Source: Haloarcula mannanilytica
Lineage (GTDB): Archaea > Halobacteriota > Halobacteria > Halobacteriales > Haloarculaceae
NCBI RefSeq assembly: GCF_005406125.1
Contig: NZ_BIXZ01000004.1
Location: forward strand, 186,001-250,000
Direction of reading: 5' to 3'
Length of the DNA: 64,000 bases
Made by a program: the position numbers and the translations under genes
The notes under the pieces: model-generated
Database searches by the model: none
Told to the model about the DNA's origin: nothing
Seen by the model: the letters and a program-made list of their open reading frames with translations, nothing else
Shown here: in pieces, positions 30,385-52,277 of the stretch
Position numbering within the stretch: position 1 is the stretch's first letter
Layout of the letters: every line of letters starts with the position of its first letter

Positions 30385-33300
30385 TTATTGTACCGTCGAG
30401 TTGTCGCGGACATCGAAGTCCTTCTGTGTCCCGATGTCCTGTTCGTCCTGCGGGAACGTGATATCGAGGTCCACGTCGATGTTGTATCGGTCCAGGACCT
30501 CCGGCGTCGCCGGGTTGACCGCGACCATCGACACCTTCGTCTCCTGCATCTGGGTCTCCACATCGTACCCGCGGGATGTGATGGCGTTGGCCGAGTCCCC
30601 GATAGCGTAGGGGACGTGGCCGTCGGGATAGCTGTCTTCCAGGCTCTCGCCTTTGAACACGCCGCCCCAGTGGTAGGGGAGGAACACCTCGCGGTCGTTC
30701 GGCCGGTCCGTGACCCGTGCCTTGACGAGTACGGAGCCACGGTCCGTCGAGGAGATGACGATGAGGTCACCCCCGTCGATACCGAGTTCGTCGGCCTTGT
30801 TCGGCGAAACCTCCGCGTACATATGCGGTTGCAGGTCGGCGGTGTGGATGTTGTTCCGCGTCTCCGCTCCGCCGCCCTGGTGTTCGACCTGCCGGCCGCT
30901 GGTCATTATCGTATCCAGGTCCGGCCCCTCGTCCTGGTTGTGGATGATGTCCGTCGCCCGTTCCTGCTCGACGAGGTTGTTCTGGTCGAGCCGGTAGAAG
31001 TTCCGCTGCTGGCCGTTTGCGGGCCACTCTGACAGCAGCTCCGTATCCGGCCCCTCGATGGGTTCGCGGTGAATCGGCACCTTGTCGAGGAAGCTCCAGA
31101 CGACGGCCCGCGCCCGGCCGCGCCCGGTCGGCGCGTCGGGCTGGCTGTAGTCGTACTCCTCGTAGAACTCGGGGTCGACCCCCTCGCCGATCATCGTTTC
31201 GAGGTACTCGTCGAACACCGGGCTTCCGGTGTCGGGATTATTCAGCGCCTGTGCGGCGGTGTAGACCGACTCCTGATTGTCGAGCGCGTACTGCTGTGGA
31301 ATCGTCAGTTCGTCCGGCTGGACCTCCTGTTCGGGGTCGATGAGGCTCTGTGGCGGTGTCACTTTCCAGCCCGGATACTCCGGGATACCGTGGATCATGC
31401 CGTCCTCGGCCGTGTCGTCGTCGTCGGCCCACTCGGGGTTGTACGGCGCACGCGTCAGGTCCAGGGCCTCCTCCTGGCTCTCGTACCGGTCGCCGACGGC
31501 GTCGAGTGTCTCCTGCATCGGGTACTCGTCGTCGGTCGGCATGCCGTCCCAGTCCTCGGGCGTGGGTGCCGAGACACCCCAGCGGGTCCGGAAGTCCTGA
31601 CCCCCGTTGTTGGGGTCCATGTCGTCGTTCCAGATGATGGGCGTACCCGGATGGTCCTCGCCCCAGCAGGGCCAGGGGAGCATCCAGTACTCGCCCGCGA
31701 CGGGCGTCCCTTCGGCTCCCTTGAGGTCTTCGTTGGAGAACGCCCAGTCGTACTCCAGGTGCTGCTGGAGCCGTTCGGGGGTCTGTCGGTAGCCAATGGT
31801 GTTGGTCCCGAGGTTGAATTCCCGGACGACGCCCTCATACGAGGACTTGCCGTTGTAGAGCTCCGAGCCCGCGCCCCAGTCGAAGTGCTCGCCGAAACCG
31901 AGGTGGCCGGCCAGTTCCTGCATGATCTGCAGGTCAGGTTTGGAGTTGTGGGCCGGCGAGCGGACCGGTTCGGACCACTGCACCGACCGGTTCGTGTTCG
32001 TCAGCGACCGGTGGTGCTCGTACTGGCTGGACGCCGGCAACAGCAGCACCGGCGGCCCCTCCTCGTAGTTGGGGAGGACGCTGGCGACCGAGGGGAACAC
32101 GTCGATGACGACCAGCAGGTCGAGGTTCTCCATCCCCTCTTTCATCTGCTCCATCTCGCTGATGGAGTTCGCCGAGTGCCCCCAGAAGAACGCGATTTTC
32201 GTCTGGTCGGGCTGGTAAATCGGTGTCTCCTGGTAGCGGTCCTCCTGGCCCAGCGCCGATTCGAACCAGCGGGCGACGGTGAGCCCGTTCTGGAACATCA
32301 TCGAGTTCTCCGCCGGGTTGTCCGGACTGTGGTCCGAGTTCGGTGGCAATGAGTCCGCGTCCTCGTTGCCCTCGTACACCGGGCTCTGGCGGACGTACTT
32401 GTCCGGCGGCATCAGCTCGAACCGATTGTACATGTCCGCGAACGAGGTGTCGCCGCTGGTTTCGGGCGTCTGGTCCCAGATTTCGGCCCACCACGACCAC
32501 CCGCCGGCCGTGAGGCCGTAGTAGCCCGGTAGGATGTGGCTCGCGACCGCGAGGTCGGTCGCCCCCTGGACGTTCGCGTGCCCGCGCATGACCTGTAGGC
32601 CGCCGCCGCTCCGGGCCGCGCTCCCGGAGGCCAGGCTCGCCATCGCGTACGAGCGGATGTTCTGGGTCCCGTTGTTGTGCTGGGTCCCGCCCATCGCCCA
32701 CTCGATCTGGATGTGGGGCCGGGCCTCGTCGATCATGTCGGCGATGCGTTCGATGTCCTCGGCGGACACCCAGGTAATCTCCTCGACGGTCTCCTTGTCG
32801 TACTGGTCGAGTTCCGCGTCGACATCTTCCCAGCCCTGGACGCGGTCGGTGAGCATGTTCTGCCCGCTCTCGTCCGCGTCGGGGTCCATCGCGAGCCCGT
32901 GCTTGTCGCGGAGTTCCTTGATGATGCCCATCATCAGGGCCACGTCGGTTCCCGGACGGAACCGCATGAACTCGTCGGCGTGAGCCGACGTTTTGGTAAA
33001 GCGCGGGTCCAGATTGAGGATGGTCCCGCCGCGTTTCTGCCCTTCGAGGATGTGCTGCATCGCAATCGGGTGTGCCTCGGCGGGGTTCTGGCCGATGATG
33101 ATGTTCAGGTCGAAGTTCCGGTAGTCCTGAACCGTGTTTGTCATCGCGCCGTAGCCCCAGGTGTTTGCCAGCCCCGTCACCGTAGTCGAGTGGCAAATCC
33201 GCGCCTGGTGGTCGATGTTGTTCGTGCCCATGAACGCCGCCAGCTTCCGGATGGCGTAGGACTCCTCGTTGGAGTGGTGGGCACTGCCCAGCAACATCAC

Positions 33301-33786
33301 GCTCTCGCGGCTGTGTTCCTCGTCGACATCGACGGCGTCGTCCGGCGAAACGTCGGAGTCGGGCCACAGCGCCTGGATGTCGGTCGACAGGCGGTCGTAG
33401 GCCTCGTTCCAGCCGAGCTTGCGCCACTCCCCGTCCTCCTGTATCATCGGATGCTTCAGGCGCTTCTCGGAGTGTTCCGTCTCGTAGATGCCGGCTCCCT
33501 TTGAACACAGCGACCCGGCATTTATTGGGTGTTCATGCCACGGCTCCATGCCGACGAAAGAGTTGCCTTCCTTCTCGCCGCGGAAGCCACAGCCCACCGA
33601 ACAGTAGTTACAAATCGTCTTTGTCAGTTCGGTGTCCGTGTCTGTGCCGTCCGTTTCCTCACCGCCTTCCTGGAGTGCCTGACCGGCCCCGCTGACGCCG
33701 AGGGCGACGCCCCCCGCGAGTGCGCTCGCTTTCATAAACGAGCGCCGGTCCAGGTCCAGTGAGACTGGTTCCTGTTGTGTACTCAT
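30385..33786 (-). CDS. Formate dehydrogenase catalytic subunit (alpha), Tat-exported
   Basis: 1133 residues from MSTQQEPVSLDLDRRSFMKA. A twin-arginine signal lies in the first 40 residues. The N-terminal [4Fe-4S] site is C59, C62, C66 and C94. The molybdenum ligand is C198 followed by H199 (ARICHSTT), where FDH-N has selenocysteine-histidine, so this is a Cys-type formate dehydrogenase. The C-terminal molybdopterin-binding barrel is present (PHMYAEVSPNKADELG). It oxidises formate outside the membrane and sends electrons through beta and gamma. The ATG at 33831 is rejected because the Tat signal fits this start better. Confidence 0.88.
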   Translation of the reverse strand: MSTQQEPVSLDLDRRSFMKASALAGGVALGVSGAGQALQEGGEETDGTDTDTELTKTICNYCSVGCGFRGEKEGNSFVGMEPWHEHPINAGSLCSKGAGIYETEHSEKRLKHPMIQEDGEWRKLGWNEAYDRLSTDIQALWPDSDVSPDDAVDVDEEHSRESVMLLGSAHHSNEESYAIRKLAAFMGTNNIDHQARICHSTTVTGLANTWGYGAMTNTVQDYRNFDLNIIIGQNPAEAHPIAMQHILEGQKRGGTILNLDPRFTKTSAHADEFMRFRPGTDVALMMGIIKELRDKHGLAMDPDADESGQNMLTDRVQGWEDVDAELDQYDKETVEEITWVSAEDIERIADMIDEARPHIQIEWAMGGTQHNNGTQNIRSYAMASLASGSAARSGGGLQVMRGHANVQGATDLAVASHILPGYYGLTAGGWSWWAEIWDQTPETSGDTSFADMYNRFELMPPDKYVRQSPVYEGNEDADSLPPNSDHSPDNPAENSMMFQNGLTVARWFESALGQEDRYQETPIYQPDQTKIAFFWGHSANSISEMEQMKEGMENLDLLVVIDVFPSVASVLPNYEEGPPVLLLPASSQYEHHRSLTNTNRSVQWSEPVRSPAHNSKPDLQIMQELAGHLGFGEHFDWGAGSELYNGKSSYEGVVREFNLGTNTIGYRQTPERLQQHLEYDWAFSNEDLKGAEGTPVAGEYWMLPWPCWGEDHPGTPIIWNDDMDPNNGGQDFRTRWGVSAPTPEDWDGMPTDDEYPMQETLDAVGDRYESQEEALDLTRAPYNPEWADDDDTAEDGMIHGIPEYPGWKVTPPQSLIDPEQEVQPDELTIPQQYALDNQESVYTAAQALNNPDTGSPVFDEYLETMIGEGVDPEFYEEYDYSQPDAPTGRGRARAVVWSFLDKVPIHREPIEGPDTELLSEWPANGQQRNFYRLDQNNLVEQERATDIIHNQDEGPDLDTIMTSGRQVEHQGGGAETRNNIHTADLQPHMYAEVSPNKADELGIDGGDLIVISSTDRGSVLVKARVTDRPNDREVFLPYHWGGVFKGESLEDSYPDGHVPYAIGDSANAITSRGYDVETQMQETKVSMVAVNPATPEVLDRYNIDVDLDITFPQDEQDIGTQKDFDVRDNSTVQ

Positions 33787-33894
33787 GGTGAATGGTGCCC
33801 ACCCATTACCGGTGCTGTCCACGTTGGCCACGCAGTTTGGTCTGTCATTGTCTGTCGATACCTAACTGACATTCGGAGTCATCCATGATAAAAG

Positions 33895-34019: not shown

Positions 34020-36155
34020 ATGAACACGGGCGCCTTCGTGTGTTCCTGTGGTGGATCGTGCGACATCGACCTCGAAGCGGTTCGGGACGGTGTTGACGAC
34101 GTTGAGGTCGTGGCCAGTTCCGAACTGCTCTGCCAGGACGGCCTGGCAGGGATGTCAAAGGTCATCGAGGAGTACGACCTCGATCAGGTCATCGCCACGA
34201 CGCCGGACCCGTCGTGTCAGGACCGCATCCGCGGGCTGGCCGACGAACACGACCTCCATCCCGAGGCGTCGGTGTTCGTCGACCACCGGGAAACCAACGC
34301 CTGGGTCCACGACGAGGCGGCGGCCACCGACAAGACGGCCCGCCTCATCAACGCAAAGGAGGCCGGGCTGCGCGAGGAAGCCCCGTCACGGACGGTGTCG
34401 AAGGACGCGGGCAACCGCGTTGCCGTCGTGGGCGACCCCGGTGCGGCCCGGTCGCTGACCGACGACGCCGACGTGACGTTCATCGCTGACGGCCGGGATT
34501 TCGCCGACGTAGAGGGCCTGGGCGACGTACGGATGGAACGGGGCCGCGTCGTCGACATCGACGGCTCCTACGGCGAATACGAACTCACGCTGGAGGCCCG
34601 CGTCACCGACGACTGCATCGACTGCATGGACTGTGTTCGAGAAGGCCCCGACGGGATGGTGACCGAGTTCCCCGTTGATATCCACCCGGACGCGCCCGAC
34701 GGCGAGTGGACGGACACGTGTCCGACCGATGCTATCGACCTGGACGGCGTCACCCGCACCGTCGAGGTAGATCAGGTCATCTATCCCGGCGGCCGCGACG
34801 ACGCCCGCGGCGGCCGGCTCGGTTTCTACACCGGGCCGGTCGACGCCGGGACCATCGCCGCCGTCGAATCGCAACTCGGTGGCATCGAGAAACCGCAGTT
34901 CCTCGACCTCGACATGGATGTCTGTGCCGCCGGCGCGTCCAGCCAGGAGGGGTGTACGGCCTGCGTGGACGCCTGTCCCCACGGCGCGGTCGACCGGCCG
35001 ACCATCGACTCCGTCGAGTTCGACGAGACCGCTTGCGAGAACTGCGGTGCCTGTACGAGTTCCTGCCCGACCGGCGCGACACAGCTCCGCGAACCCTCGA
35101 ACCGACGGCTCGCCCGCGAGGTCGAGGCGATGCTTGAAGACGATTCGGACGGGGGGTTGCTCTCGCGGAGCGACAGCAGGGGTATCGAGACCCAGGTCGT
35201 CGCGTTTGTCTGCTCGGAGTACGCCGCGGAACGGCTCCGAGCGCACGGACGCAAAGCCGTCCAGTCGGGCGACCTCGACTACCCGCCGATTCTCCCGGTC
35301 CACGTCAACTGCACGGATACGGTCGGCGAGGCCCACGTCATGCACGCGCTCGCCGCTGGCGCGGACGGCGTCGCCATCGTCGGCTGTGGCGGCTCCTGTC
35401 TCCACTCCGGCCCGGACCCCAAACAGGACCTCGTCGACCGGCTCAATCAGGCGACGACTGATCTGGGCCTTGGCGACCGCGTTGGCTTCTTCGCGCCCGA
35501 GGCCGGCAACCCCGAAGCCTTCGTCGAATCGCTGTCCGGTTTTGTCGAGTTCGGGTTAGACGAGACGCCGATTCCGGCCGGCGACTACGAGGCGACCGGT
35601 CGCAGCGACACCGACCGCGAAGAACCTCGCCCGAATCCGGATTTCGACAGCCACGGCTGGACCTTGGAGAGCGTCCGAACCATCCTCGACCACGTCGAGC
35701 CCGAGCGCGAGGTGATTCGCGGGCTGAAGGACTTCGGCGTCATGTCGGTCAACGACGCGTGTACGCTGACACCGACCTGTACGAACCTCTGTCCGACCGA
35801 CGCCATCAAGCGGACCGGGCAGGGCGAACTCGCCTTCAACCACGCGGACTGCGTGAACTGCGGCCTCTGTGAGGAGGGCTGCCCGGAGACGGCGATTACG
35901 ATGCACGACGGGCTGGACCTCTCCCTGCTCCCCGAGAACCGCGACGGCGAGGCCTGGACGACGGTCCACGAGGGCGACATGCTCGAATGCGTCCGCTGTG
36001 GCAAACCCTTCACCAGCGTCGCCTCAGCCGACAAAATCGAGGAGGAGGTCGGCGATCAGGTGGAGGGGCTGGCCCCCGACGCCGACCACTCAGTCTTCGA
36101 GTACTGTAGCGACTGTCGGAGTCGCTTGCTGTTCGACCAGGGGGAGAAGCGATGA
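34020..36155 (+). CDS. HdrA-N/ferredoxin/MvhD fusion electron-transfer protein
   Basis: 711 residues. The N-terminus (FVCSCGGSCDIDLEAV, then ETNAWVHDEAAATDKTARL) matches the N-terminal HdrA domain of heterodisulfide reductases. HdrA's large FAD domain is reduced to roughly 60 residues with a weak VAVVGDPGAARSL loop. Then come ferredoxin clusters (CTACVDACP, CENCGACTSSCP), an MvhD domain (VAFVCSEYAAERL, NCTDTVGEAHVMHALAAGADGVAIVGC), another ferredoxin (CTNLCP, CVNCGLCEEGCP) and a final CVRC...CSDC zinc-like pair. MvhD links Hdr to hydrogenase or formate dehydrogenase in methanogens. It is co-transcribed with a TorD chaperone and divergent from fdh. Confidence 0.85.
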   Translation: MNTGAFVCSCGGSCDIDLEAVRDGVDDVEVVASSELLCQDGLAGMSKVIEEYDLDQVIATTPDPSCQDRIRGLADEHDLHPEASVFVDHRETNAWVHDEAAATDKTARLINAKEAGLREEAPSRTVSKDAGNRVAVVGDPGAARSLTDDADVTFIADGRDFADVEGLGDVRMERGRVVDIDGSYGEYELTLEARVTDDCIDCMDCVREGPDGMVTEFPVDIHPDAPDGEWTDTCPTDAIDLDGVTRTVEVDQVIYPGGRDDARGGRLGFYTGPVDAGTIAAVESQLGGIEKPQFLDLDMDVCAAGASSQEGCTACVDACPHGAVDRPTIDSVEFDETACENCGACTSSCPTGATQLREPSNRRLAREVEAMLEDDSDGGLLSRSDSRGIETQVVAFVCSEYAAERLRAHGRKAVQSGDLDYPPILPVHVNCTDTVGEAHVMHALAAGADGVAIVGCGGSCLHSGPDPKQDLVDRLNQATTDLGLGDRVGFFAPEAGNPEAFVESLSGFVEFGLDETPIPAGDYEATGRSDTDREEPRPNPDFDSHGWTLESVRTILDHVEPEREVIRGLKDFGVMSVNDACTLTPTCTNLCPTDAIKRTGQGELAFNHADCVNCGLCEEGCPETAITMHDGLDLSLLPENRDGEAWTTVHEGDMLECVRCGKPFTSVASADKIEEEVGDQVEGLAPDADHSVFEYCSDCRSRLLFDQGEKR

Positions 36156-36778
36156 ACGACGCGGCCGTCTACGAGGCCCGGTTAGAGCTCGTGGATTTCG
36201 TCATCGACGTGTTCTGGGACGTGCCCGAGGAGGCGTTCGTCGAGCGGCTACTGACCGGCGACATTCAACTGCCCGAAGACTCCATCAACGACCAACTTGA
36301 CGAGGGCTTCGAGATGCTGCAGGCGTGGATCGACGAGAACGCCGACCGGCCGGTCTCGGCGGTACAGGACGACCTCGAACGGGAGTACACGGACCTGCTC
36401 GTCGGCCCGCGACCGCCGGTGTTGCCCCACGAGACGAACTACCGCGAGGATACGGAGTTCATCGGTGAGGGCCTGGCCGAAGTCGAGGCCAGCTACGCCG
36501 CGGCGGGATGGGCACCGCCCGAGGAGTACCCCGAAGAAGAGGACTTCATCGCTATCGAGATGGCGTTCCTTCGGTATCTCATCGAGCGCCAGCGCGAGGG
36601 TGACGAGGAGACCGTCGGCTACGAGCGGGTGTTCATCGAGCAACACCTCAGCGAGTGGGTCGTCGACTTCACCGACGAGATGCGCGAGGAAGCCGACGAC
36701 GGGCTGTTCCTCGCCGCGGCGCTCGTCTGTGAGGGACTGGTCCGGTTCGAGGACGAAATCGTCGCGCAGATCGGCTAA
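36152..36778 (+). CDS. TorD/DmsD-family molybdoenzyme chaperone
   Basis: 208 residues, all-helical and very acidic. It contains the family region YTDLLVGPRPPVLPHETNY and IEMAFLRYLIERQ, and the C-terminal helices WVVDFTDEMREEADDGLF. TorD-type proteins bind the Tat signal and apoprotein of a molybdoenzyme until cofactor is loaded. Here the client is most likely the divergent formate dehydrogenase. Its ATG overlaps the stop of the fusion gene by four bases (ATGA). Confidence 0.82.
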   Translation: MNDAAVYEARLELVDFVIDVFWDVPEEAFVERLLTGDIQLPEDSINDQLDEGFEMLQAWIDENADRPVSAVQDDLEREYTDLLVGPRPPVLPHETNYREDTEFIGEGLAEVEASYAAAGWAPPEEYPEEEDFIAIEMAFLRYLIERQREGDEETVGYERVFIEQHLSEWVVDFTDEMREEADDGLFLAAALVCEGLVRFEDEIVAQIG

Positions 36779-37533: not shown

Positions 37534-38751
37534 ATGACTTCGCGCCGTGGGCTGTTGCTCCGACTCTCCACGCTTACCGGGGCTGCGGGTCTCAGCGGCT
37601 GTTCGTCCCTGCTGGCCAGACAGGCGGTGTCGCCGACCGGTGACCTCGACCCCAACCCACGAGCCGACGAACTACCGATGCGTCAGCACGCCTGGAACGA
37701 CGCTCTGCGACGGGACGACGCCGACAACGAACTGCTGCCACGTCACTTCCGGCTCTACATGCTCGACCTCGACGTGTCGCCGTCGGACTCGGCCGCGGAG
37801 ACAGTCGAACTCGCGATGCGAACGCTCGAAGACGCCTACGAGTTCAACAGCGAGGGACTCCTGCACATGCTCGGTTGGGGGACGAGCTACTTCGACACGC
37901 ACGGCTCGCTCGACGCGTCGCCGATACGCAGCCCCCGCGTTCTCTCCCGGACGGACGACCCCGACCTGCAGGCCTTCGACGCGATACTAGTGCTCGCAAG
38001 CGACGTTCCCTCTCAGCTCGCGGCCGCCGAATCGGCGATGTTCGACACGCGGCCGACGCTCGCGGGCGCGGACGTGCAGGGGCGACTCGGGAACGTGTTC
38101 TCTGTCGCCGACCGCCGCGGAGGGTTCATCGGCGAGGGACTGCCCGCGGCCCACGCCGACGCCGAGGGCGTGCCCTCGACCATCCCCGAATCGGCCCCGA
38201 TGTTCTCGGGCTTCTTTTCCGGCCGCTCGGGGTCACAGGCCAGCGAGGACCGCGTTACCATCTCGGACGGCCCCCACGCCGGCGGGACGACGATGCACCT
38301 CTCGCGGCTGAACGAGTCCTTCGACAACTGGTGGGAGCTCGCCCAGTCCGAGCGCGTCCAACGGATGTTCTCGGCAGAGTTCTCCCAGGAAGACATTGAT
38401 AGGGGTGACCTCCCCTTCGCTGACATGGTCCGCGAACACGCAAGCGAGGACGGACAGGTCGGCCACTGGGAGAAGGTCGCCCGCGCCCGCAAAGACGGGG
38501 AGCCGATCATTCTTCGCCGGGATTTCAACACGGTCGATGGCGGCCAGGCCGGGATTCACTTCCTCTCGCTGCAGGCCCACCTCGGGGACTTCGAGGCGAC
38601 CCGCGACGCCATGAACGGCTGGTGGCTCCGCGAGGAACACGAGGACCTGCGCGACCGCCAGAACAACGGCCTGTTGGAGTTTATCGAGGTCGTAACGCGT
38701 GCAAATTTCTACGTCCCACCGCGGGACAAGCGGGCGTTCCCGAGCACGTAG
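37534..38751 (+). CDS. DyP-type peroxidase-like Tat lipoprotein
   Basis: 405 residues. The N-terminus has twin arginines (MTSRRGLLLRLST) and a lipobox ending LSGC near residue 24, so it is exported and lipid-anchored. The C-terminal half follows the dye-decolourising peroxidase fold: GTTMHLSRLNESFDNWWEL, DMVREHASEDGQVGHW (a likely heme-ligand His region) and ILRRDFNTVDGGQAGIHFLSLQ. The usual distal G-x2-D-G motif is instead GFFSGRSGSQ. It may be a peroxidase-like redox protein or a non-catalytic relative. It is preceded by a divergent operon of small membrane proteins. Confidence 0.7.
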   Translation: MTSRRGLLLRLSTLTGAAGLSGCSSLLARQAVSPTGDLDPNPRADELPMRQHAWNDALRRDDADNELLPRHFRLYMLDLDVSPSDSAAETVELAMRTLEDAYEFNSEGLLHMLGWGTSYFDTHGSLDASPIRSPRVLSRTDDPDLQAFDAILVLASDVPSQLAAAESAMFDTRPTLAGADVQGRLGNVFSVADRRGGFIGEGLPAAHADAEGVPSTIPESAPMFSGFFSGRSGSQASEDRVTISDGPHAGGTTMHLSRLNESFDNWWELAQSERVQRMFSAEFSQEDIDRGDLPFADMVREHASEDGQVGHWEKVARARKDGEPIILRRDFNTVDGGQAGIHFLSLQAHLGDFEATRDAMNGWWLREEHEDLRDRQNNGLLEFIEVVTRANFYVPPRDKRAFPST

Positions 38752-39775: not shown

Positions 39776-40561
39776 TTATTCCTCGGCGAGCTCCCAGTCG
39801 GCCTTCTCGGCGGCGTCCGAGAGCGGAATGAACTCCCACCCCGTCCGTTCGGCGATGGGCTCGTCGTCGGGGCGGCCGACCAGCACCATCCGCTCGGCGT
39901 AGAACATCGAGTGCTCGTCGATGTCGGCCAGCCGCTCGGCCGGTTCCTGGCCCGCGCCGCTGAAGAAGTCGGCGTCGATACCGTGGTCGCGCTGGAACTT
40001 GTTGATGACGAAGGCATCAACGTCGCCGACGATACCGACCCAGTCGGCCCACGCCCGCGCCTCCTGAAAGACCCGCTGTGGGTCGGCGAACTGCCGGGCC
40101 GCGTCGTAGGTCACCGCCATCGTCATATCGTCGATGCCGCCGCCGTGGGGGCCGCTCGCCTCGACGGACTTTTCGCCGGCAGCGGGGTCCTCGGCCACGT
40201 TCGAGGCCGGGTCGGTGTCGGTCGCGGCCGCGCCACCCGCGCCGCCGCTGTCCGTCGGGATGCCGACCGGCTTGTCCTTGTTCTCTCTGGGAACGTGCGG
40301 GACCGACTGGTCGCTGGGGTCCGCGCTGGCAGTGTCCGGTCCATCCTCCGCGATACCGGTATCCCCATCAGTACCCGTACCTGTGGCCGTAGCCGACCCG
40401 TTATTCTCGGCCTCAGCGTCGCTGTCGGGCCGAACCGATACAGTCCCGGGCTCCGGCTCATCTTCCGGATCACCTTCCCCGCTCCAGAACCAGTCGCCCC
40501 GGTTCGGCGTCTCTTCGTCGTTCTGTACGTCGAGTTCATCGAGGTCGATTTGGTCTGTCAT
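39776..40561 (-). CDS. Acidic protein coupled to the AOR-like gene (DUF7124-like)
   Basis: 261 residues. The first 145 residues are low-complexity and rich in Asp, Glu, Gly and Ala, likely disordered (DELDVQNDEETPNRGDWFW). A folded C-terminal part follows: MAVTYDAARQFADPQRVFQEA, WVGIVGDVDAFVINKFQRDHG and SMFYAERMVLVGRP. No catalytic motif is recognised. It starts on the last bases of the AOR-like gene (ATGA), so it is probably a partner of that enzyme. The family name is from memory. Confidence 0.62.
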   Translation of the reverse strand: MTDQIDLDELDVQNDEETPNRGDWFWSGEGDPEDEPEPGTVSVRPDSDAEAENNGSATATGTGTDGDTGIAEDGPDTASADPSDQSVPHVPRENKDKPVGIPTDSGGAGGAAATDTDPASNVAEDPAAGEKSVEASGPHGGGIDDMTMAVTYDAARQFADPQRVFQEARAWADWVGIVGDVDAFVINKFQRDHGIDADFFSGAGQEPAERLADIDEHSMFYAERMVLVGRPDDEPIAERTGWEFIPLSDAAEKADWELAEE

Positions 40562-42327
40562 TCTCCCAGTGTCGTGTCCGCTGGTCGTGTCGCCCCGTCG
40601 ACGGCGTCCGCGAGGCCGAGCCGTTCGATTGTCTCGCGGGTGGGTCGGCCGTCCGCGTCCCAGCCCCGCTGGCTGTAGTACTCGTCGAGCATCGCGTCGA
40701 AGGACTCGGTGTCGATTGCCGCGCCCGCATTCGGCCCCGAATCGAGGGGTTCCCGGAGCTTCGCCGGGAGTTCGTCGTCGGCTCGCGATACGCCTTCGCG
40801 GACGTTGAACAACCGCGTCAGGTTCCACACCCGTTCGCCGACCGTCGCGAGGTCGCCGTCCGTGTCTAGACCGACGGCGTCGAGCCACTCCGCGCCGAGA
40901 TCGTCGAAGGCGTCGCCGACGAAGTCATCGACGACAAGACACCACAGCACCGAGCGCTGGTCCTGCTCTCGGATGACGGCCGCGGCCGCCCGCTCGGGGC
41001 TCCAGTCGCCGTCGAAGGCCTCCCGCTCGATTGTGAGGGCGCGTCGGTGACAGGCTCCGCGGTCGCTGGTCGCGTACGCCAGCGCCATGCTCCGCGCTCC
41101 GCGGGGGTCGTACGCGGGCAGTTCCATCGCCTTGACCGTCGGCAGGAGGTCGTCCCCGCCAAGACGGGCCGAGGCCGCGTCGACGCCGTCGGCCAGGGCG
41201 TCCCCGAGCGTCGTCTCCCGCGTGACGATCTCGTTCAGCAGCGCCCGCGCGTCGTCGGGGCTTCCGTAATCGAGCGATTCCTCCAGTAGGCCGGCGTCAC
41301 CGGCTTTGATTGCCCACGCGACAGCGCTCCCGGCGCTGATGAGGTCGAGGCCGAGTCGGTTGCACGTCTCGCCCAGCGCCGCCACGGCGTCGAAATCGTC
41401 GATGCCGAGGCCGGCCCCGAGGCTCATCGCCGTCGCGCCCCGCGGAATGGTTTCGCCGTCCTCCGTCTCGACGCGAAAGCCGCCGGGGCTGCCCTCGTCG
41501 TCGTACTCCCGGCCCGCGGCGAGTTCTTGGACGGCCTCTATGCCGACGCCGTCGGCTCCCTCGAACTGACCGTCTTCCCAGCCCCGCGTCGAGAGCGCGC
41601 CGACCTCGTTGGCGAAATCGACCGTTTCGACGGTCCCGCTGGCGTGGAGCCACTGGCCGGTGTCGCCCTCGCGGTACCGCTGTGCGTACTGTTCCCGCAG
41701 CTCCGCGAGGTCCGTCGGCGGGTCGCCGCGGACGACGACGGCTTTCAGCCGCTTTGCACCCATCACCGACCCGGCACCGCCCCGGCCGGCGTGGTGTTCG
41801 CCACCGTCTGAGGCGATAGTCGCGAACGCGACCCCCTGCTCGCCCGCGGGGCCGATACACGCTACCGAAGCATCGGGAAACGCCGCCGCGGTTTCGGCGG
41901 TGTCCTGCCCCCACGTCTCGGTCGGTTCGACCGTCGCGCCGTCGTCCTCGACGACGAGTTCGACCGGCTCCGAGGCGCGGCCGGTGACCAGAATTCCGAT
42001 GTGGTCCTGCAGCGCGCCGGCCAGCGTGTCCGGGAACGTCCCGCCCGCGTAGGAATCGAGGAAGCCGCCGGTCAGCGGCGACTTCGTGACCGCGGCGTAG
42101 CGCGTCTCGCCGGGCAGGAGTCCGGAGACCGGCCCGAGCATGAACAGCAGGACGTTCTCGGGACCCAGCGGGTCGGTTCCAGCGTCGAGTTCGTCGTACA
42201 GGTACCGAGCGCCGAGTCCCTTGCCGCCCACGAACCGCTGACGCCACTGCCCCGGGACCGGACGGCTCTCGACCGACGCCGACGACAGGTCGACGCGCAG
42301 TATCCGGTCCCGATTGGCTACTGTCAT
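40558..42327 (-). CDS. Aldehyde ferredoxin oxidoreductase homologue without the usual cluster cysteines
   Basis: 589 residues from MTVANRDRILRVDLSS. Domain 1 motifs of tungsten/molybdopterin AORs are present: FVGGKGLGARYLY, GETRYAAVTKSPLTGGF, CIGPAGEQGVAFATI, GRGGAGSVMGAKRLKAV and NRLGLDLISAGSAVAW. Where AORs carry the C-x2-C-x3-C cluster motif, residues 271-284 read AGREYDDEGSPGGF. Only four cysteines exist (about 157, 322, 426, 463). The pterin-binding frame is therefore kept, but the [4Fe-4S] site is apparently lost. It is co-transcribed with the acidic protein downstream and lies among cofactor genes. Substrate unknown. Confidence 0.85.
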   Translation of the reverse strand: MTVANRDRILRVDLSSASVESRPVPGQWRQRFVGGKGLGARYLYDELDAGTDPLGPENVLLFMLGPVSGLLPGETRYAAVTKSPLTGGFLDSYAGGTFPDTLAGALQDHIGILVTGRASEPVELVVEDDGATVEPTETWGQDTAETAAAFPDASVACIGPAGEQGVAFATIASDGGEHHAGRGGAGSVMGAKRLKAVVVRGDPPTDLAELREQYAQRYREGDTGQWLHASGTVETVDFANEVGALSTRGWEDGQFEGADGVGIEAVQELAAGREYDDEGSPGGFRVETEDGETIPRGATAMSLGAGLGIDDFDAVAALGETCNRLGLDLISAGSAVAWAIKAGDAGLLEESLDYGSPDDARALLNEIVTRETTLGDALADGVDAASARLGGDDLLPTVKAMELPAYDPRGARSMALAYATSDRGACHRRALTIEREAFDGDWSPERAAAAVIREQDQRSVLWCLVVDDFVGDAFDDLGAEWLDAVGLDTDGDLATVGERVWNLTRLFNVREGVSRADDELPAKLREPLDSGPNAGAAIDTESFDAMLDEYYSQRGWDADGRPTRETIERLGLADAVDGATRPADTTLGE

Positions 42328-42416: not shown

Positions 42417-43022
42417 ATGCGCGCAGGAGTTATCGTCGCGGGCGGCCGGTCGACGCGGTTCGGGGACAGCGACAAGGCCGTGGCCGACCTCGCCGGGACG
42501 CCGATGATCCGTCGCGTCGCCGACCGCATAGGCCAGGTCGTCAACGAACTCGTCGTGAACTGCCGCGAGGACCAGGTCGAGGCCATCGACGCGGCGCTGT
42601 CGGGCCACGCGCTCGACCCGACGTTCGCACTGGACGAGGACCCCGACCAGGGGCCGATGGCCGGCATCGCGACCGGACTGGGAGCCGTCGACAGTGAGTA
42701 CGCCGCCGTGGTGGCCTGTGACATGCCCTTCGTGGACCCGGGGTTCGTCGAGTATCTGTTCGAGCGGGCGGCGTCGCACGAGGCCGCAGTCCCGCGCCCG
42801 GACGAGTGGTTCCAGACGACCCAGGCGGTGTACCACGCCGGGGCAATGCGGGCGGCCTGTCGGCGAGCGCTGGACCGCGGCGAGCACAAGGTCGTCGAAC
42901 CCATCTTCGACCTCGATTACGTGGTTGTGGAGCGCGAGGAAGTCCTCGAACACACCACGATGAAGACCTTTGACAATCTCAATACCCGCGAAGAGTTCGA
43001 GGCGGCGGTCGAACGGTTCTGA
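42417..43022 (+). CDS. mobA: Molybdenum cofactor guanylyltransferase
   Basis: 201 residues. The nucleotide-binding start AGVIVAGGRSTRFGDSDKAV and the metal-binding VVACDMPFVDPGF match MobA. GPMAGIATGLGAV is the GTP-side loop. It joins GMP to molybdopterin to form the bis-MGD cofactor that the formate dehydrogenase needs. It is divergent from the AOR-like gene (89 bases) and convergent with the yqeC-like gene. Confidence 0.9.
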   Translation: MRAGVIVAGGRSTRFGDSDKAVADLAGTPMIRRVADRIGQVVNELVVNCREDQVEAIDAALSGHALDPTFALDEDPDQGPMAGIATGLGAVDSEYAAVVACDMPFVDPGFVEYLFERAASHEAAVPRPDEWFQTTQAVYHAGAMRAACRRALDRGEHKVVEPIFDLDYVVVEREEVLEHTTMKTFDNLNTREEFEAAVERF

Positions 43023-43049: not shown

Positions 43050-43769
43050 TCAGACGACAGCGACCAGCGGGTCGTCGGCCCGCATCTCCGCGAGCACTAC
43101 GCGCGGGACATCGGCCCGGTCGTGTATCGCCTCGGCGACCGCCCGCGCACTCGCTTCGAGGTCGGCGTCGTCAACCATGTTGAGCAGCGGAATCGCGGTT
43201 GCGTCGCCGGGCACATCTTTCAGCCCGCCGCGGTCGCTGGCGAGGACCGCCGCGACATCTTCCGGCCGAATCTCGTCGTCGGGGTTGAGGCCGGTTATCG
43301 CGGCCACTTCGTCGACTCGGTGAACGATCTCCTCGGTCAGCGGCTCGCCGACGACGTGGGCACTGGCGATGGGAACCACCGTGGATGCCGTCGAGGGTAG
43401 CTGTGGCTCGCGGTCGCTCGGCGCTTTGAACTCACGCATCCGCGCGCCGTCGGCTTTCACCAGAATCGGGTGGTCGATGTCGGCTAGCTCGGCGACGGTC
43501 TCCGGATCGTACCCGCGGTAGCGGTCCGGTCGCTCCTGTGCCGGAACGACGCCAAGCGGCCACGCGGACCCACCTTCGATGGCTGCCCGCGGGTTTTCTG
43601 TCACCACAACCTCGTCAACCCAGCCGTCGAAAATCGGAATCCTGACTGTCGCGGTGACGACCGCGTGGTCAAGGTGACCGGCGAGCGTTGCCATCGTCGT
43701 TTTCTTGCCCCCAGCGCCGACGAAACAGGTCGTCCCTCGCCGTGCGTCCAGCGCGTCGACGATGTCCAT
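43050..43769 (-). CDS. YqeC-like selenium-cofactor/molybdoenzyme accessory protein
   Basis: 239 residues from MDIVDALDARRGTTCF. A P-loop (FVGAGGKKTTMATLAGHL) near residue 17, the HPILVKADGARMREFKAPSD region and VVPIASAHVVGEPL match the YqeC family. In bacteria it works with selenium-dependent molybdenum hydroxylases. Here it probably helps cofactor maturation; no selenium genes were seen in this window. A second start at 43775 adds two residues. It is divergent from moaA across 108 bases. Confidence 0.75.
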   Translation of the reverse strand: MDIVDALDARRGTTCFVGAGGKKTTMATLAGHLDHAVVTATVRIPIFDGWVDEVVVTENPRAAIEGGSAWPLGVVPAQERPDRYRGYDPETVAELADIDHPILVKADGARMREFKAPSDREPQLPSTASTVVPIASAHVVGEPLTEEIVHRVDEVAAITGLNPDDEIRPEDVAAVLASDRGGLKDVPGDATAIPLLNMVDDADLEASARAVAEAIHDRADVPRVVLAEMRADDPLVAVV

Positions 43770-43877
43770 ATCCACCGAAGGGCCGTGTCGGGATTAACCG
43801 TTACCCCGATGAGTACGGTTTCGGAACCGGCACAGTCACGCCATTTAAGAGGATGTGCTGTGAATAGTTAGCAAGGA

Positions 43878-44960
43878 ATGCTCGAAGACGACTTCGGTCG
43901 CGAGGTGTCCGGTGTCCGCGTCTCCCTGACCGACCGGTGTAACTTCGACTGCGTCTACTGTCACAACGAGGGGCTGGGAGACACACGGGGCCCGATGGAG
44001 GCACAGGACGACGAACTCACCGCCGACACCATCGTGGCGTTTCTCGAAGTCGCCGCCGAGTTCGGCGTCGACTCCGTGAAGTTCACGGGCGGGGAGCCGA
44101 TGCTCCGGGAGGACCTAGAGGAGATCGTCCGACGCGCCCCCAACGAGATGGAGGTGTCGATGACGACCAACGGCACCTTCCTCCCCGGCCGCGCCCCGGA
44201 CCTCGTCGACGCGGGTCTTGAGCGGGTCAACGTCTCGCAGGACGCACTGGACAGCGAGGCCTTCGCCGAACTGACCCAGAGCGGGGCCTACGACCGCGTC
44301 CTCGAAGGCGTCGAGGCGGCGCTTGACGCCGGCCTCAAACCGGTGAAGCTCAACATGGTCGTCTTCGAGCCCACGGCGGGGTACGTCCCGAAGATGGTCG
44401 ACCACGTCGCCGAGAACCCCGGTCTCCAGCTCCAGCTCATCGAGTACATGCCGGAGCTGGCCGGCCACCCGGAGTGGGCAATCGACATCCAGCGGGTCCA
44501 CGACTGGCTGGAGGACCGCGCCGACACGGTCGAACACCGCGAGATGCACGACCGAAAGCGCTACTGGATACACAGCAGCGAGGAGACGGCCGAAAGCGCA
44601 GGAACCACTACCTCGCTGGCCGCCTCCGACGGCGGCGTGCGGACGGAGCCGGTCAACAACCAGAACAGCGGGATGGTCGAAATCGTCGACCCCGTCGGCA
44701 ACGAGAACTTCTGTGCGAACTGCCACCGCGTACGGCTCACTCACGACGGCTTTCTCAAGGGCTGTCTGAACCGCAACGACGACCTGCGGGACATCGGCAC
44801 GACCAAGGAGTCGATGCGCGCCGCGTTCCGCGAGACGGTCGACACCCGCGTCCCCTACTACGGCGAGTACATGGTCGAAACCGAGGACGGCGAGTGGGAG
44901 ATAAACGACGACTACATCGACACCGACGGGGACCGTGCGCCCTACGAGTACTCCGAGTAA
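43878..44960 (+). CDS. moaA: GTP 3',8-cyclase (MoaA)
   Basis: 360 residues. The radical-SAM motif is CNFDCVYC near residue 22. [14 protein letters not shown] is the SAM-side motif. The C-terminal cluster is [11 protein letters not shown] plus GCLN near residue 293. It makes the first molybdopterin intermediate from GTP. An insert rich in Thr, Ser and Gly around residues 235-265 makes it about 30 residues longer than most MoaA. It heads the direction moaA, transporter, DHH gene. Confidence 0.92.
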
Positions 44961-45011: not shown

Positions 45012-46097
45012 ATGAGTTTCACGTTCCGCGACCGGACGCCGATCTCGCTGTCGTGGAACGAACTGACCGGCGCGGTCGGGGACTCGGCGACGGTGTTGCC
45101 GGTCGTCGTGGCCGTCGCCGTGCTGACCGAGCTCTCGCTCCCGGTCATGCTCGTCTGGTTCGGCGTTTTTCAGGTCGTCTGGGGGCTGTACTACGGTGTC
45201 CCCATCTCCATCGAGCCGATGAAGGCCTTCGCCGCGCTGGTCATCGCGGGGACGATTTCGACCGGCGAACTCGTTGTCGCGGGGCTACTGCTGGCAGTGA
45301 TTCTACTCGCGCTCGGTACCACGCGGTCCCTCGGGACGGTCAATCAGTACGTCGACGACACCGTCGTCCGGGGAATCCAACTCGGCGTCGCGCTGGTCCT
45401 GCTGGAGACGGGGGTGGGTCTCGGACTCAGCGACCCGCGGCTCGTGGCCGTCGCCGTCGGCGTGGTGGCGGTCCTCGCGGTGATCGGCCACAGCGGGCAG
45501 AGCGCCTTCGCCGTCTTCGTCCTCGGGGTCGGCCTCGCCCTCGCGGAAACCGGGGTGCCGACGCCGGCCGTCCCCGCCGTCGACGCCATGTTCATGCTCC
45601 CGACAATGACGGTGTCGGTACAGACGGCAGAGGCGGTCCTCGCACAGATCGCAGTCACGGTCGGCAACGCCGCCCTCGCAACGTCGGTCCTGCTCGCGGA
45701 CTACTTCGACCGAGATGTGTCCGCAGACCAGCTCTCGAACAGCATGGGACTGATGAACCTTACGGCGGTCCCGTTCGGCGCGTTCCCGATGTGTCACGGC
45801 AGCGGCGGCGTCGCCGGAAAGTACGCCTTCGGGGCCAGAACGTCCGGCGCGAACCTGATACTCGGGGCGGGCTACATCCTCACCGCCTTCCTCGCCGTCG
45901 GCGTCATCGCGGCCTATCCGACGGCGCTGCTCGGCGTCATTCTGGTGCTGATCGCGCTCCAGCTGGGCTGGACCGGCGTTTCCAGAACGGATAACCTGGT
46001 TGTCGTCGTGGCAATCGGCCTCCTCGGCGTCCTTGTCAATCTCGGGCTCGCGTTCGTCCTGGGTGTGCTCGTCCAGCAGTTACGTGCTCGGTTGTGA
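45012..46097 (+). CDS. MOT1-like molybdate/sulfate transporter
   Basis: 361 residues, about ten hydrophobic helices. Two MOT1 signatures are visible: YGVPISIEPMKAFAAL near residue 65 and FPMCHGSGGVAGKYAFG near residue 262. The family moves molybdate with high affinity. Its place 51 bases after moaA and inside the cofactor island supports molybdate or tungstate uptake. The ion cannot be settled by sequence alone. Confidence 0.85.
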   Translation: MSFTFRDRTPISLSWNELTGAVGDSATVLPVVVAVAVLTELSLPVMLVWFGVFQVVWGLYYGVPISIEPMKAFAALVIAGTISTGELVVAGLLLAVILLALGTTRSLGTVNQYVDDTVVRGIQLGVALVLLETGVGLGLSDPRLVAVAVGVVAVLAVIGHSGQSAFAVFVLGVGLALAETGVPTPAVPAVDAMFMLPTMTVSVQTAEAVLAQIAVTVGNAALATSVLLADYFDRDVSADQLSNSMGLMNLTAVPFGAFPMCHGSGGVAGKYAFGARTSGANLILGAGYILTAFLAVGVIAAYPTALLGVILVLIALQLGWTGVSRTDNLVVVVAIGLLGVLVNLGLAFVLGVLVQQLRARL

Positions 46098-50813: not shown

Positions 50814-52277
50814 TTAGACCCGTGCGAGTTGCAGGTCGCCCTCGCTGACCGGGCTGACGTAGGTGCCGACGCGTTCGCGCTCCCACCACCGGCCAGTTTC
50901 GCGGCGCTCCTCGGGCGTCGTGAACCGGTACCGGTAGCGGACCGCGCGGACGTGCGTGGGTGTCGTCTCGGCGAACGGGACCGACTCCAGCAGTTTTTCG
51001 GTGGTCTCGTCGCCGGCCAGCAGTCGATCTAATAGCACGAGGAACCACGGACTCCGACGAGGCGAGGGAGCCATCGCTGCGAACCACAGCTGCCAGTCCA
51101 GTCGGTAGTGGTACGGCGCGACCTGCCGCGGCCGCTGGGCGGGGTCCGTGGGCTTGCCCTTGAACTCGTAGGTCTGCCAGTCCGTGTCGGCCGTGATGAC
51201 CTCGTCGGTGGTCCTCTGGACGACGATCTCATATCGATTCCGAGTAATCGAGCCGAACGCGCCGTAGGTGTTGACCAGTCGGAGCGGGTCAAAGGCGGTG
51301 TTCATCACCTGTCGTTCCGAAAGGATGTTTCGGACCGGGTCGACGCTCCGCCAGAGGACGACCGCGGCGAGGACGACAGAAATCGCTTGCAGGTACAGCG
51401 GCGGCGCGCTTGCGCTCACACTCGGCGCGGTGACCGGGAAGACGGACGTGAGGACGCCGTCGCTGAACGTCGCGATGGCCTGGACGATGGTGAGGGCGTT
51501 GAGCCACGAGAAGTTCCCCGTCAGCATGAGCCAGCCCTGGAACCCGATAGTCGCAGCCCCCGCCACCGACGCCCAGGGCTGGGGCGCGAAGTAGAGGAAC
51601 GGCACGGCGACTTCAACGACGTGGTTGCCAAGCACCTCCAGCCGATGGAACCGGTCTGGGAGGTGGTGTACGTACCAGCTCACCGGGTTCGGAATCGGTT
51701 GTGTCTCGTAGTGGTAGTCCAGCGCGGTGAGGTCCCGCCAGCAGTCGTCACCGCGTAGTTTGATGAGTCCAGCGCCGAACATATTGCGGAACAGGAGCCA
51801 CTTGAGCAGCCAGATAACGACGATCGGCGGCCCCGTCGACCCTGCACCGAGAAACGTCGCGAGGAAACCGGTCTCAAGCAGCATCGACTCCCAGCCGTAC
51901 CCGTAGAACGTCTGGCCGGCATTGACAAAAGAGAGATACAGCGCCCACAGGGTGAGCCACAGCAGTATCGATAGGGGAACTGCGTACGGACGCGGAAACC
52001 ATGACGGGAGGCCGACGAATGCCAGCACTGAAAGCCCGACGCCAGCCCAGGCCGTGATGCCAATGGCGCGGTCGTCCGGGTAGAAATAGAACAGGCTGGG
52101 GCGGTCACGGAACTCGTGGCGCTCGACGTACTGCTGTATCGGCAACAGGCCGTCTTCGCCCGCGAGCGGACGGAACTGCGTGGCTGCGACGAGGAAGGCC
52201 AGTAGGTAGATGACCGCAAGCCCCCGGTGAAACAGGAACCTGACGAGCCAGTACGCCTCTGACTCCCACGGCAGCAT
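50814..52277 (-). CDS. Lipase maturation factor (LMF1-like) membrane protein
   Basis: 487 residues with about eight hydrophobic helices, starting MLPWESEAYWLVRFLFHRG. Signature stretches: FRNMFGAGLIKLRGDDCWRDLTALDYHYETQPIPNP and NTYGAFGSITRNRYEIVVQR, both typical of LMF1. In animals LMF1 helps lipases fold in the ER. Its archaeal role is unknown. It ends beside the DCC redox gene, which suggests thiol-related folding outside the membrane; this is inference. Confidence 0.85.
   Translation of the reverse strand: MLPWESEAYWLVRFLFHRGLAVIYLLAFLVAATQFRPLAGEDGLLPIQQYVERHEFRDRPSLFYFYPDDRAIGITAWAGVGLSVLAFVGLPSWFPRPYAVPLSILLWLTLWALYLSFVNAGQTFYGYGWESMLLETGFLATFLGAGSTGPPIVVIWLLKWLLFRNMFGAGLIKLRGDDCWRDLTALDYHYETQPIPNPVSWYVHHLPDRFHRLEVLGNHVVEVAVPFLYFAPQPWASVAGAATIGFQGWLMLTGNFSWLNALTIVQAIATFSDGVLTSVFPVTAPSVSASAPPLYLQAISVVLAAVVLWRSVDPVRNILSERQVMNTAFDPLRLVNTYGAFGSITRNRYEIVVQRTTDEVITADTDWQTYEFKGKPTDPAQRPRQVAPYHYRLDWQLWFAAMAPSPRRSPWFLVLLDRLLAGDETTEKLLESVPFAETTPTHVRAVRYRYRFTTPEERRETGRWWERERVGTYVSPVSEGDLQLARV

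What the first reader, a model, noticed from the sequence alone, without database searches (positions are those of the whole stretch)
41470..41530. AOR homologue that has lost the [4Fe-4S] cysteine motif
The protein at 40558-42327 keeps the pterin-site motifs of aldehyde ferredoxin oxidoreductases (GGKGLGARYLY, AVTKSPLTGGF, GRGGAGSVMGAKRLKAV). The place of the usual C-x2-C-x3-C motif reads AGREYDDEGSPGGF. Only four cysteines exist in the whole chain, spread far apart. It is coupled to an acidic, partly disordered protein. A pterin enzyme without its cluster would need another electron path, or may have a non-redox job.
Basis: partly seen in the sequence, partly recalled or inferred. Interest (0 to 1): 0.7.

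Follow-up and report, generated by a model that had tools for sequence, protein, structure and literature searches.

The report
Clusterless AOR-fold protein beside formate dehydrogenase
Salt-loving archaea keep a protein shaped like a tungsten aldehyde-oxidising enzyme that has lost its iron-sulphur cluster and key catalytic residues, is found only in genomes that also carry a formate dehydrogenase, and so is more likely a helper that handles the metal cofactor than an aldehyde-oxidising enzyme.

Summary
The gene is on the minus strand (window 40558-42327) and encodes a full-length AOR-fold protein with none of the four [4Fe-4S] cysteines. This is a fixed trait, not a local mutation: the cluster motif is absent from all 127 orthologues examined, which form one clade with a single loss. 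The loss also goes beyond the cluster: Glu311-Tyr312-Glu313 became Arg-Gly-(Ala/Gly/Ser), pterin ligand Asp489 became Trp, Cys494 became Asp. These replacements are nearly invariant, dN/dS is about 0.1, and the predicted structure keeps the whole AOR fold (Z 45). An aldehyde oxidoreductase with another electron path is therefore unlikely. Genome context points to formate dehydrogenase (FDH). All 108 carriers among 194 Halobacteria have FDH and the accessory protein YqeC, and the gene usually lies near FDH, YqeC or MobA. Halobacteria lack the standard FDH maturation factor FdhD (0 of 194), whereas 57 of 57 FDH-bearing relatives outside the class have it. Best reading: a redox-dead AOR paralogue recruited to handle the Mo/W-bispterin cofactor for FdhD-less formate dehydrogenases. 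The association is shown; the mechanism is inferred. 23 genomes with FDH and YqeC lack the protein, so it is not universally required.

The parts
40558..42327 (-). AORx: 589-aa AOR-fold protein without Fe-S ligands
   Evidence: Pfam AFOR_N and AFOR_C; AF2 pLDDT 88.7, pTM 0.92; Z 45-46 to 1aor/1b25/9mqx; dN/dS 0.075-0.117
41476..41517 (-). former C-x2-C-x3-C loop, residues 271-284 AGREYDDEGSPGGF
   Evidence: the surrounding loop 273-297 varies from 22 to 69 aa among 127 orthologues; blocks 271-300 have pLDDT 59-67
41434..41445 (-). PRGA, residues 295-298, in place of AOR Pro310-Glu311-Tyr312-Glu313
   Evidence: Arg296 126/127, Gly297 127/127
40927..40944 (-). WCLVVD, residues 462-467, in place of pterin/cluster motif DSAGLC (AOR 489-494); Trp462 and Asp467 near-invariant
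   Evidence: each 124/127; 2 of the remaining 3 are gaps
41041..41064 (-). DRGACHRR, residues 422-429, retains His427 (AOR His448)
41791..41796 (-). His178-His179 in place of AOR Arg182-Ala183
   Evidence: 126/127 and 120/127
39776..40561 (-). acidic DUF7124 protein, 4-nt overlap with AORx
   Evidence: PF23439 E=1.1e-39; ATGA overlap; the DUF7124 family occurs in all 194 Halobacteria
42417..43022 (+). MobA-like guanylyltransferase, divergent neighbour
   Evidence: PF12804 E=4.6e-36; TIGR02665 hit below its cut-off
43050..43775 (-). YqeC
   Evidence: TIGR03172 182.8 bits, cut-off 73
43878..44960 (+). MoaA
   Evidence: TIGR02668 377 bits, over cut-off
45012..46097 (+). MOT1-type molybdate transporter
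   Evidence: PF16983 E=1.7e-43
30385..33831 (-). formate dehydrogenase-like catalytic subunit, 1148 aa, with the Cys-His pair ARICHSTT
   Evidence: best NCBIfam hit TIGR01591 E=3e-116, below its full cut-off; CH motif
34020..36155 (+). HdrA/FlpD-type polyferredoxin
   Evidence: PF02662 and Fer4 domains
36152..36778 (+). TorD-type molybdoenzyme chaperone
   Evidence: TIGR03482 and PRK04976 hits, below cut-off

Best explanation
A paralogue of tungsten aldehyde oxidoreductases lost its [4Fe-4S] cluster and catalytic residues once, in an ancestor of haloarchaea. It was kept as a redox-inactive protein that binds or passes on the Mo/W-bispterin cofactor (the form AORs hold, and the precursor that MobA converts to bis-MGD) during maturation of formate dehydrogenases. 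Haloarchaea lack FdhD, the usual FDH sulfuration and insertion factor, so YqeC and, in most genomes, this protein are candidates to fill part of that gap. Shown here: cluster loss, loss of catalytic and pterin residues, a single origin, purifying selection, retained AOR fold, co-occurrence with FDH and YqeC, gene proximity, absence of FdhD. Inferred: that a pterin is bound, and the role in cofactor handling.
For: All four cluster cysteines are absent from 60/60 orthologues; the 16 haloarchaeal paralogues listed and three solved AORs keep all four. The three-cysteine motif is also absent from the named orthologues, and only 1 of 127 has any CxxC/CxxxC. One loss, SH-aLRT 100. Pocket replacements near-invariant. 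Fold kept. 108/108 carriers have FDH, Fisher 2.7e-23, and YqeC, 1.7e-30. Within 6 kb, 56/66 named loci and 29/40 genus representatives carry FDH, YqeC or MobA, against 2/16 cluster-bearing paralogues. FdhD in 0/194 Halobacteria (second model) against 57/57 FDH-bearing genomes of the phylum outside the class. Halodesulfurarchaeum formicicum HSR6 (identified by replicon length 2,085,946 bp), of a genus that respires formate (PMC5437934), has no FdhD hit (G007) but has fdhA, YqeC and AORx in one locus.
Against: 23 genomes with FDH and YqeC lack AORx, so it cannot be generally essential, and YqeC tracks FDH better (131 of 133). 11 of 40 genus-representative loci show none of FDH, YqeC or MobA within 6 kb, some because the fetched stretch or contig is short. 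Co-occurrence counts are not corrected for phylogeny, and the FdhD/YqeC swap is one split between classes. No biochemical evidence that any pterin is bound; several pterin contacts are changed (Asn93, Asp489).
Confidence: 0.42

Rival explanations
1. Cofactor-free pseudoenzyme: a structural or regulatory partner of FDH or of the Moco machinery that keeps the AOR fold as a scaffold and binds no pterin.
For: Loss of catalytic residues, Asp489, Cys494 and Asn93; low-complexity loop; FDH link.
Against: The pocket-side motifs are the most conserved part of the protein (mean entropy 0.53 for residues 396-432 and 0.74 for 296-345, against 1.56 for the C-terminus), which suggests a ligand still sits there.
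Confidence: 0.22
2. A non-redox (hydratase- or lyase-type) Mo/W-pterin enzyme of one-carbon metabolism: it keeps a pterin and His448, lost electron transfer, and acts near formate or C1-folate genes.
For: His427 and many N-terminal pterin-side residues kept; formate-THF ligase near AORx in some loci; FolD and EtfBA in the H. formicicum HSR6 locus.
Against: The Glu311-Tyr312-Glu313 motif is lost throughout; neighbours are as often cofactor genes (MobA, YqeC, MoaA) as C1 enzymes.
Confidence: 0.18
3. A working aldehyde oxidoreductase that passes electrons to another partner without its own cluster, for example to a polyferredoxin.
For: AOR fold and several pterin-side motifs retained; an HdrA-like polyferredoxin lies in some of the loci.
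Against: Catalytic Glu313 and Tyr312 and pterin ligand Asp489 are lost together with the cluster in all complete orthologues tested; the polyferredoxin is absent from many AORx loci.
Confidence: 0.06
4. Alternative cluster: the three near-invariant cysteines 157, 322 and 426 ligate Fe-S or another metal elsewhere in the fold.
For: Cys157 124/127, Cys322 127/127, Cys426 126/127.
Against: The same three cysteines occur in 9mqx and 9g7j together with the four normal ligands, so they are ancestral and explained without metal binding.
Confidence: 0.04

Closest known systems
Aldehyde ferredoxin oxidoreductase, Pyrococcus furiosus (1AOR), and FOR (1B25)
   Same: whole fold (Z 45.4 and 46.4, rmsd 2.2-2.3 angstrom over 563-573 residues); about 33% identity; Arg76, Gly95, Asp343 and His448 kept
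   Different: no [4Fe-4S] ligands; Glu313, Tyr312, Asp489, Asn93 and Arg182 replaced
Cluster-bearing haloarchaeal AORs L074, L075, L088 (42-44% identity)
   Same: sister clade (SH-aLRT 99); share Tyr93, His-His 182-183, Arg450 and an aromatic residue at 489
   Different: keep all four cluster cysteines and Tyr312-Glu313; two of the three sit beside an aldo-keto reductase and none beside FDH
Synergistota AOR relatives (L155, L157)
   Same: next branch of the tree; same DRG(A/G)CHQRA and SL(V/I)VCDF context
   Different: C-x2-C-x3-C and the fourth Cys present
FdhD (FDH sulfurtransferase and bis-MGD chaperone)
   Same: proposed step, FDH cofactor maturation, by genome context only
   Different: unrelated sequence; absent from all Halobacteria tested

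Membership tests
AOR / tungsten oxidoreductase (WOR) family | AFOR_N and AFOR_C domains, AOR fold | tested here: met
AOR / tungsten oxidoreductase (WOR) family | [4Fe-4S] ligands C-x2-C-x3-C plus Cys494 | tested here: not met
AOR / tungsten oxidoreductase (WOR) family | catalytic Glu313/Tyr312 and His448 | tested here: not met
   Glu and Tyr lost, His kept
AOR / tungsten oxidoreductase (WOR) family | two DxxGL(C/D) pterin motifs | tested here: not met
   first kept as (N/D)xxGxD in most; second replaced by WxxxxD
AOR / tungsten oxidoreductase (WOR) family | bound W/Mo-bispterin and aldehyde oxidation | not testable with these tools
   needs purified protein
FdhD family | FdhD-NarQ domain (PF02634) | tested here: not met
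   Pfam scan returns only the AFOR domains
Pseudoenzyme (fold kept, catalysis lost, purifying selection) | catalytic residues lost in the whole clade while dN/dS is far below 1 | tested here: met
FDH maturation factor | needed for FDH activity or cofactor loading | not testable with these tools
   only co-occurrence and gene proximity were tested

The most novel reading that the evidence does not exclude
Haloarchaea mature formate dehydrogenase without FdhD, through a different route in which YqeC and an AOR-fold, cluster-free bispterin carrier handle the cofactor between MobA and the apo-enzyme.
Probability: 0.2. Interest if true: 0.85.

Novelty: new variant of a known kind. Interest (0 to 1): 0.6.

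Why it matters
AOR-type proteins are taken to be tungsten redox enzymes with a [4Fe-4S] cluster. Here a whole clade, widespread in haloarchaea, is a poor candidate for that activity, so its automatic annotation as aldehyde ferredoxin oxidoreductase is probably misleading. The context search also found that Halobacteria have formate dehydrogenases but no FdhD, which is essential for FDH where it has been tested (PMC13197769), although one haloarchaeal genus demonstrably respires formate. That makes a concrete open question (what replaces FdhD) directly testable by deleting yqeC and this gene.

Tried and rejected
Pseudogene or sequencing error: rejected (127 orthologues, dN/dS about 0.1). Relocated cluster ligands: rejected by the ancestral-cysteine test. 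Motif misaligned rather than lost: rejected, since almost no orthologue has any CxxC or CxxxC (1 of 127). DUF7124 as an obligate partner: rejected, since it adjoins only 13 of 40 loci and its family occurs in all Halobacteria. AORx as the sole FdhD substitute: weakened by the 23 FDH/YqeC genomes that lack it. The same protein outside Halobacteria: none above 46% identity in 196 genomes of the phylum, and the seven best outside hits fetched all keep the C-x2-C-x3-C motif. Literature: no paper found on DUF7124; six papers hold both yqeC and formate dehydrogenase, and none of their titles or abstracts links the two; the 2026 WOR classification was searched for halophiles, 'lack' and Cys, with no mention of clusterless haloarchaeal members (PMC13328260). 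The careful tree did not finish; the quick tree is used. Foldseek and VIA found no fold other than AOR/FOR/WOR/BamB among significant matches.

Full report
OBSERVATION. The gene lies on the minus strand, 42327 to 40558, 589 aa. Pfam finds AFOR_N (E=2.7e-62) and AFOR_C (E=2.4e-94) over nearly the whole chain. phmmer aligns it end to end with 9mqx, 1AOR and other solved AORs. AGREYDDEGSPGGF is residues 271-284, window 41517-41476, and stands where 1AOR reads nkpCyaCpigC. There are four cysteines, at 157, 322, 426 and 463.

CONSERVATION OF THE LOSS. 108 of 194 Halobacteria genomes carry an orthologue of 53% identity or more (counted). In an alignment of 60 of these with 22 paralogues and solved AORs, all four AOR ligands (288, 291, 295, 494) are absent from every orthologue, while the 16 haloarchaeal paralogues listed from separate loci and the three solved AORs keep all four. 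Named orthologues from Haloarcula, Natrinema, Haloferax, Halorubrum, Halobellus, Natronococcus, Haladaptatus and others agree. The former loop (273-297) ranges from 22 to 69 residues with acidic low-complexity inserts in 127 orthologues. AlphaFold gives this stretch pLDDT 59-67, against 88.7 overall. A cluster site could hardly tolerate that. The quick maximum-likelihood tree needs one change of state: the clusterless rows form one clade (SH-aLRT 100), sister to cluster-bearing haloarchaeal AORs L074, L075 and L088 (99), then Synergistota (98).

MORE THAN THE CLUSTER WENT. Relative to 1AOR: Glu311-Tyr312-Glu313 became Arg-Gly-(Ala/Gly/Ser); Asp489 became Trp and Cys494 became Asp (each 124/127, two of the remaining three being gaps); Asn93 became Tyr; Arg182-Ala183 became His-His; Lys450 became Arg. 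Arg76 (118/127), Gly95, Asp343 and His448 are kept. That these residues bind pterin or catalyse in AOR is from established knowledge of the 1AOR structure, not tested here. The sister clade already has Tyr93, His-His and an aromatic residue at 489 but keeps the cysteines and Tyr-Glu, so part of the pocket changed before the cluster was lost. dN/dS among six Haloarcula copies is 0.075-0.117. The predicted fold is the complete AOR fold: Z 45.4 to 1AOR and 46.4 to 1B25, rmsd 2.2-2.3 angstrom over 563-573 residues.

RELOCATED CLUSTER TEST. 9mqx and 9g7j carry these three as well as the four ligands; they are ancestral and need no metal to explain them.

GENOME CONTEXT. In the window the gene overlaps a DUF7124 gene by 4 nt and faces mobA, yqeC, moaA and a MOT1 molybdate transporter on one side and an FDH-like subunit, an HdrA-like polyferredoxin and a TorD-like chaperone on the other. 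The FDH-like subunit carries the Cys-His pair (ARICHSTT). Its best NCBIfam match is TIGR01591, below that model's full cut-off. Much of this arrangement recurs across several haloarchaeal families (L036, L040, L055, L057, L061, L068). Other AORx loci carry different FDH types: about 1000 aa with Fe-S and membrane subunits, about 700 aa beside formate-THF ligase, or FDH with a NuoF-like subunit. Within 6 kb, FDH, YqeC or MobA occurs in 56 of 66 named loci and 29 of 40 genus representatives, against 2 of 16 loci of cluster-bearing paralogues.

CO-OCCURRENCE. Over 194 Halobacteria: AORx 108, YqeC 133, any FDH 144. All AORx genomes have FDH (36 FDH only, 50 neither; Fisher 2.7e-23) and all have YqeC (25 YqeC only, 61 neither; 1.7e-30). 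YqeC and FDH coincide in 131 of 133. Thirteen FDH-positive genomes lack YqeC; the seven inspected (L168-L174) carry another operon type with two molybdopterin proteins, whose function was not established. The counts are not corrected for phylogeny, and genome lists were transcribed from tool tables.

FdhD. PF02634 has no match in 194 Halobacteria, while the same search finds it in 8 of 14 controls; TIGR00129 agrees on 59 genomes. In the phylum set, 57 of 57 FDH-bearing genomes outside the class have FdhD, and all 20 YqeC matches are inside the class. Genome G007 has a replicon of 2,085,946 bp, the exact length published for Halodesulfurarchaeum formicicum HSR6 (PMC5437934). Halodesulfurarchaeum respires formate (PMC5437934). 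G007 shows no FdhD but has fdhA (66% identity to a TIGR01591 FDH), yqeC and AORx (57% identity to the window protein) within 16 kb. In Methylorubrum extorquens FdhD is indispensable for the tungsten FDH tested, and MobA acts just before it (PMC13197769). YqeC was known as a proposed accessory of selenium-dependent molybdenum hydroxylases (PMC2276186), with no clear phenotype when deleted in C. difficile (PMC11448449).

INTERPRETATION. Shown: single cluster loss, loss of catalytic residues, retained fold, selection, and association with FDH, YqeC and MobA in a lineage without FdhD. Inferred: AORx still holds a bispterin and serves FDH cofactor assembly or delivery. AOR enzymes hold the cofactor without nucleotide, which is the substrate form of MobA; a redox-dead AOR would therefore be a natural holder before or around guanylylation (inference from known biochemistry). 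Against this, 23 FDH/YqeC genomes do without AORx, so YqeC is the stronger general candidate and AORx may be auxiliary, metal-specific or a scaffold. An aldehyde oxidoreductase with a different electron path is unlikely.

VERDICT. Observation confirmed and strengthened; first reading partly supported; a new variant within the AOR superfamily that should not be annotated as an aldehyde ferredoxin oxidoreductase; a testable link to FdhD-less formate dehydrogenase maturation.

Noticed in passing
Halobacteria as a class; window FDH at 30385-33831: No FdhD in any of 194 Halobacteria genomes although 144 carry formate dehydrogenase-like genes; all 57 FDH-bearing relatives outside the class have FdhD.
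   Followed up: partly
window 43050-43775: YqeC, described elsewhere as a selenium/molybdenum-hydroxylase accessory, tracks formate dehydrogenase in haloarchaea (131 of 133 YqeC genomes have FDH). The own genome also has a second, 44%-identical copy (G000:C6).
   Followed up: partly
window 39776-40561: DUF7124 occurs in all 194 Halobacteria; the window copy is a second, longer one with an acidic low-complexity N-terminal half, found beside AORx mostly in the window-type FDH locus.
   Followed up: partly
window 37534-38751: DUF7405 protein with a weak Dyp-peroxidase C-terminal match and a Tat/lipobox-like start, conserved inside the FDH-AORx locus of several genera.
   Followed up: no
L168-L174: Haloarchaeal operon with two molybdopterin proteins (about 757 aa with DNCNRLCHSST and about 650 aa with DNRAR.CH) plus an approximately 500-aa NuoF-like protein; it matches Fdh-alpha strongly yet occurs in genomes without the FDH-type YqeC, AORx or FdhD.
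   Followed up: no
Halorubrum and Halobellus orthologues L132, L138, L139, L141: Acidic low-complexity insertions of up to about 44 residues in the former cluster loop.
   Followed up: yes
window 50814-52277: Lipase maturation factor family protein (PF06762, E=2.6e-63) in an archaeon.
   Followed up: no
L165 (Dehalococcoidia): A distant AOR homologue with a partly broken cluster motif (CWSCPVKSG), a possible independent case.
   Followed up: no
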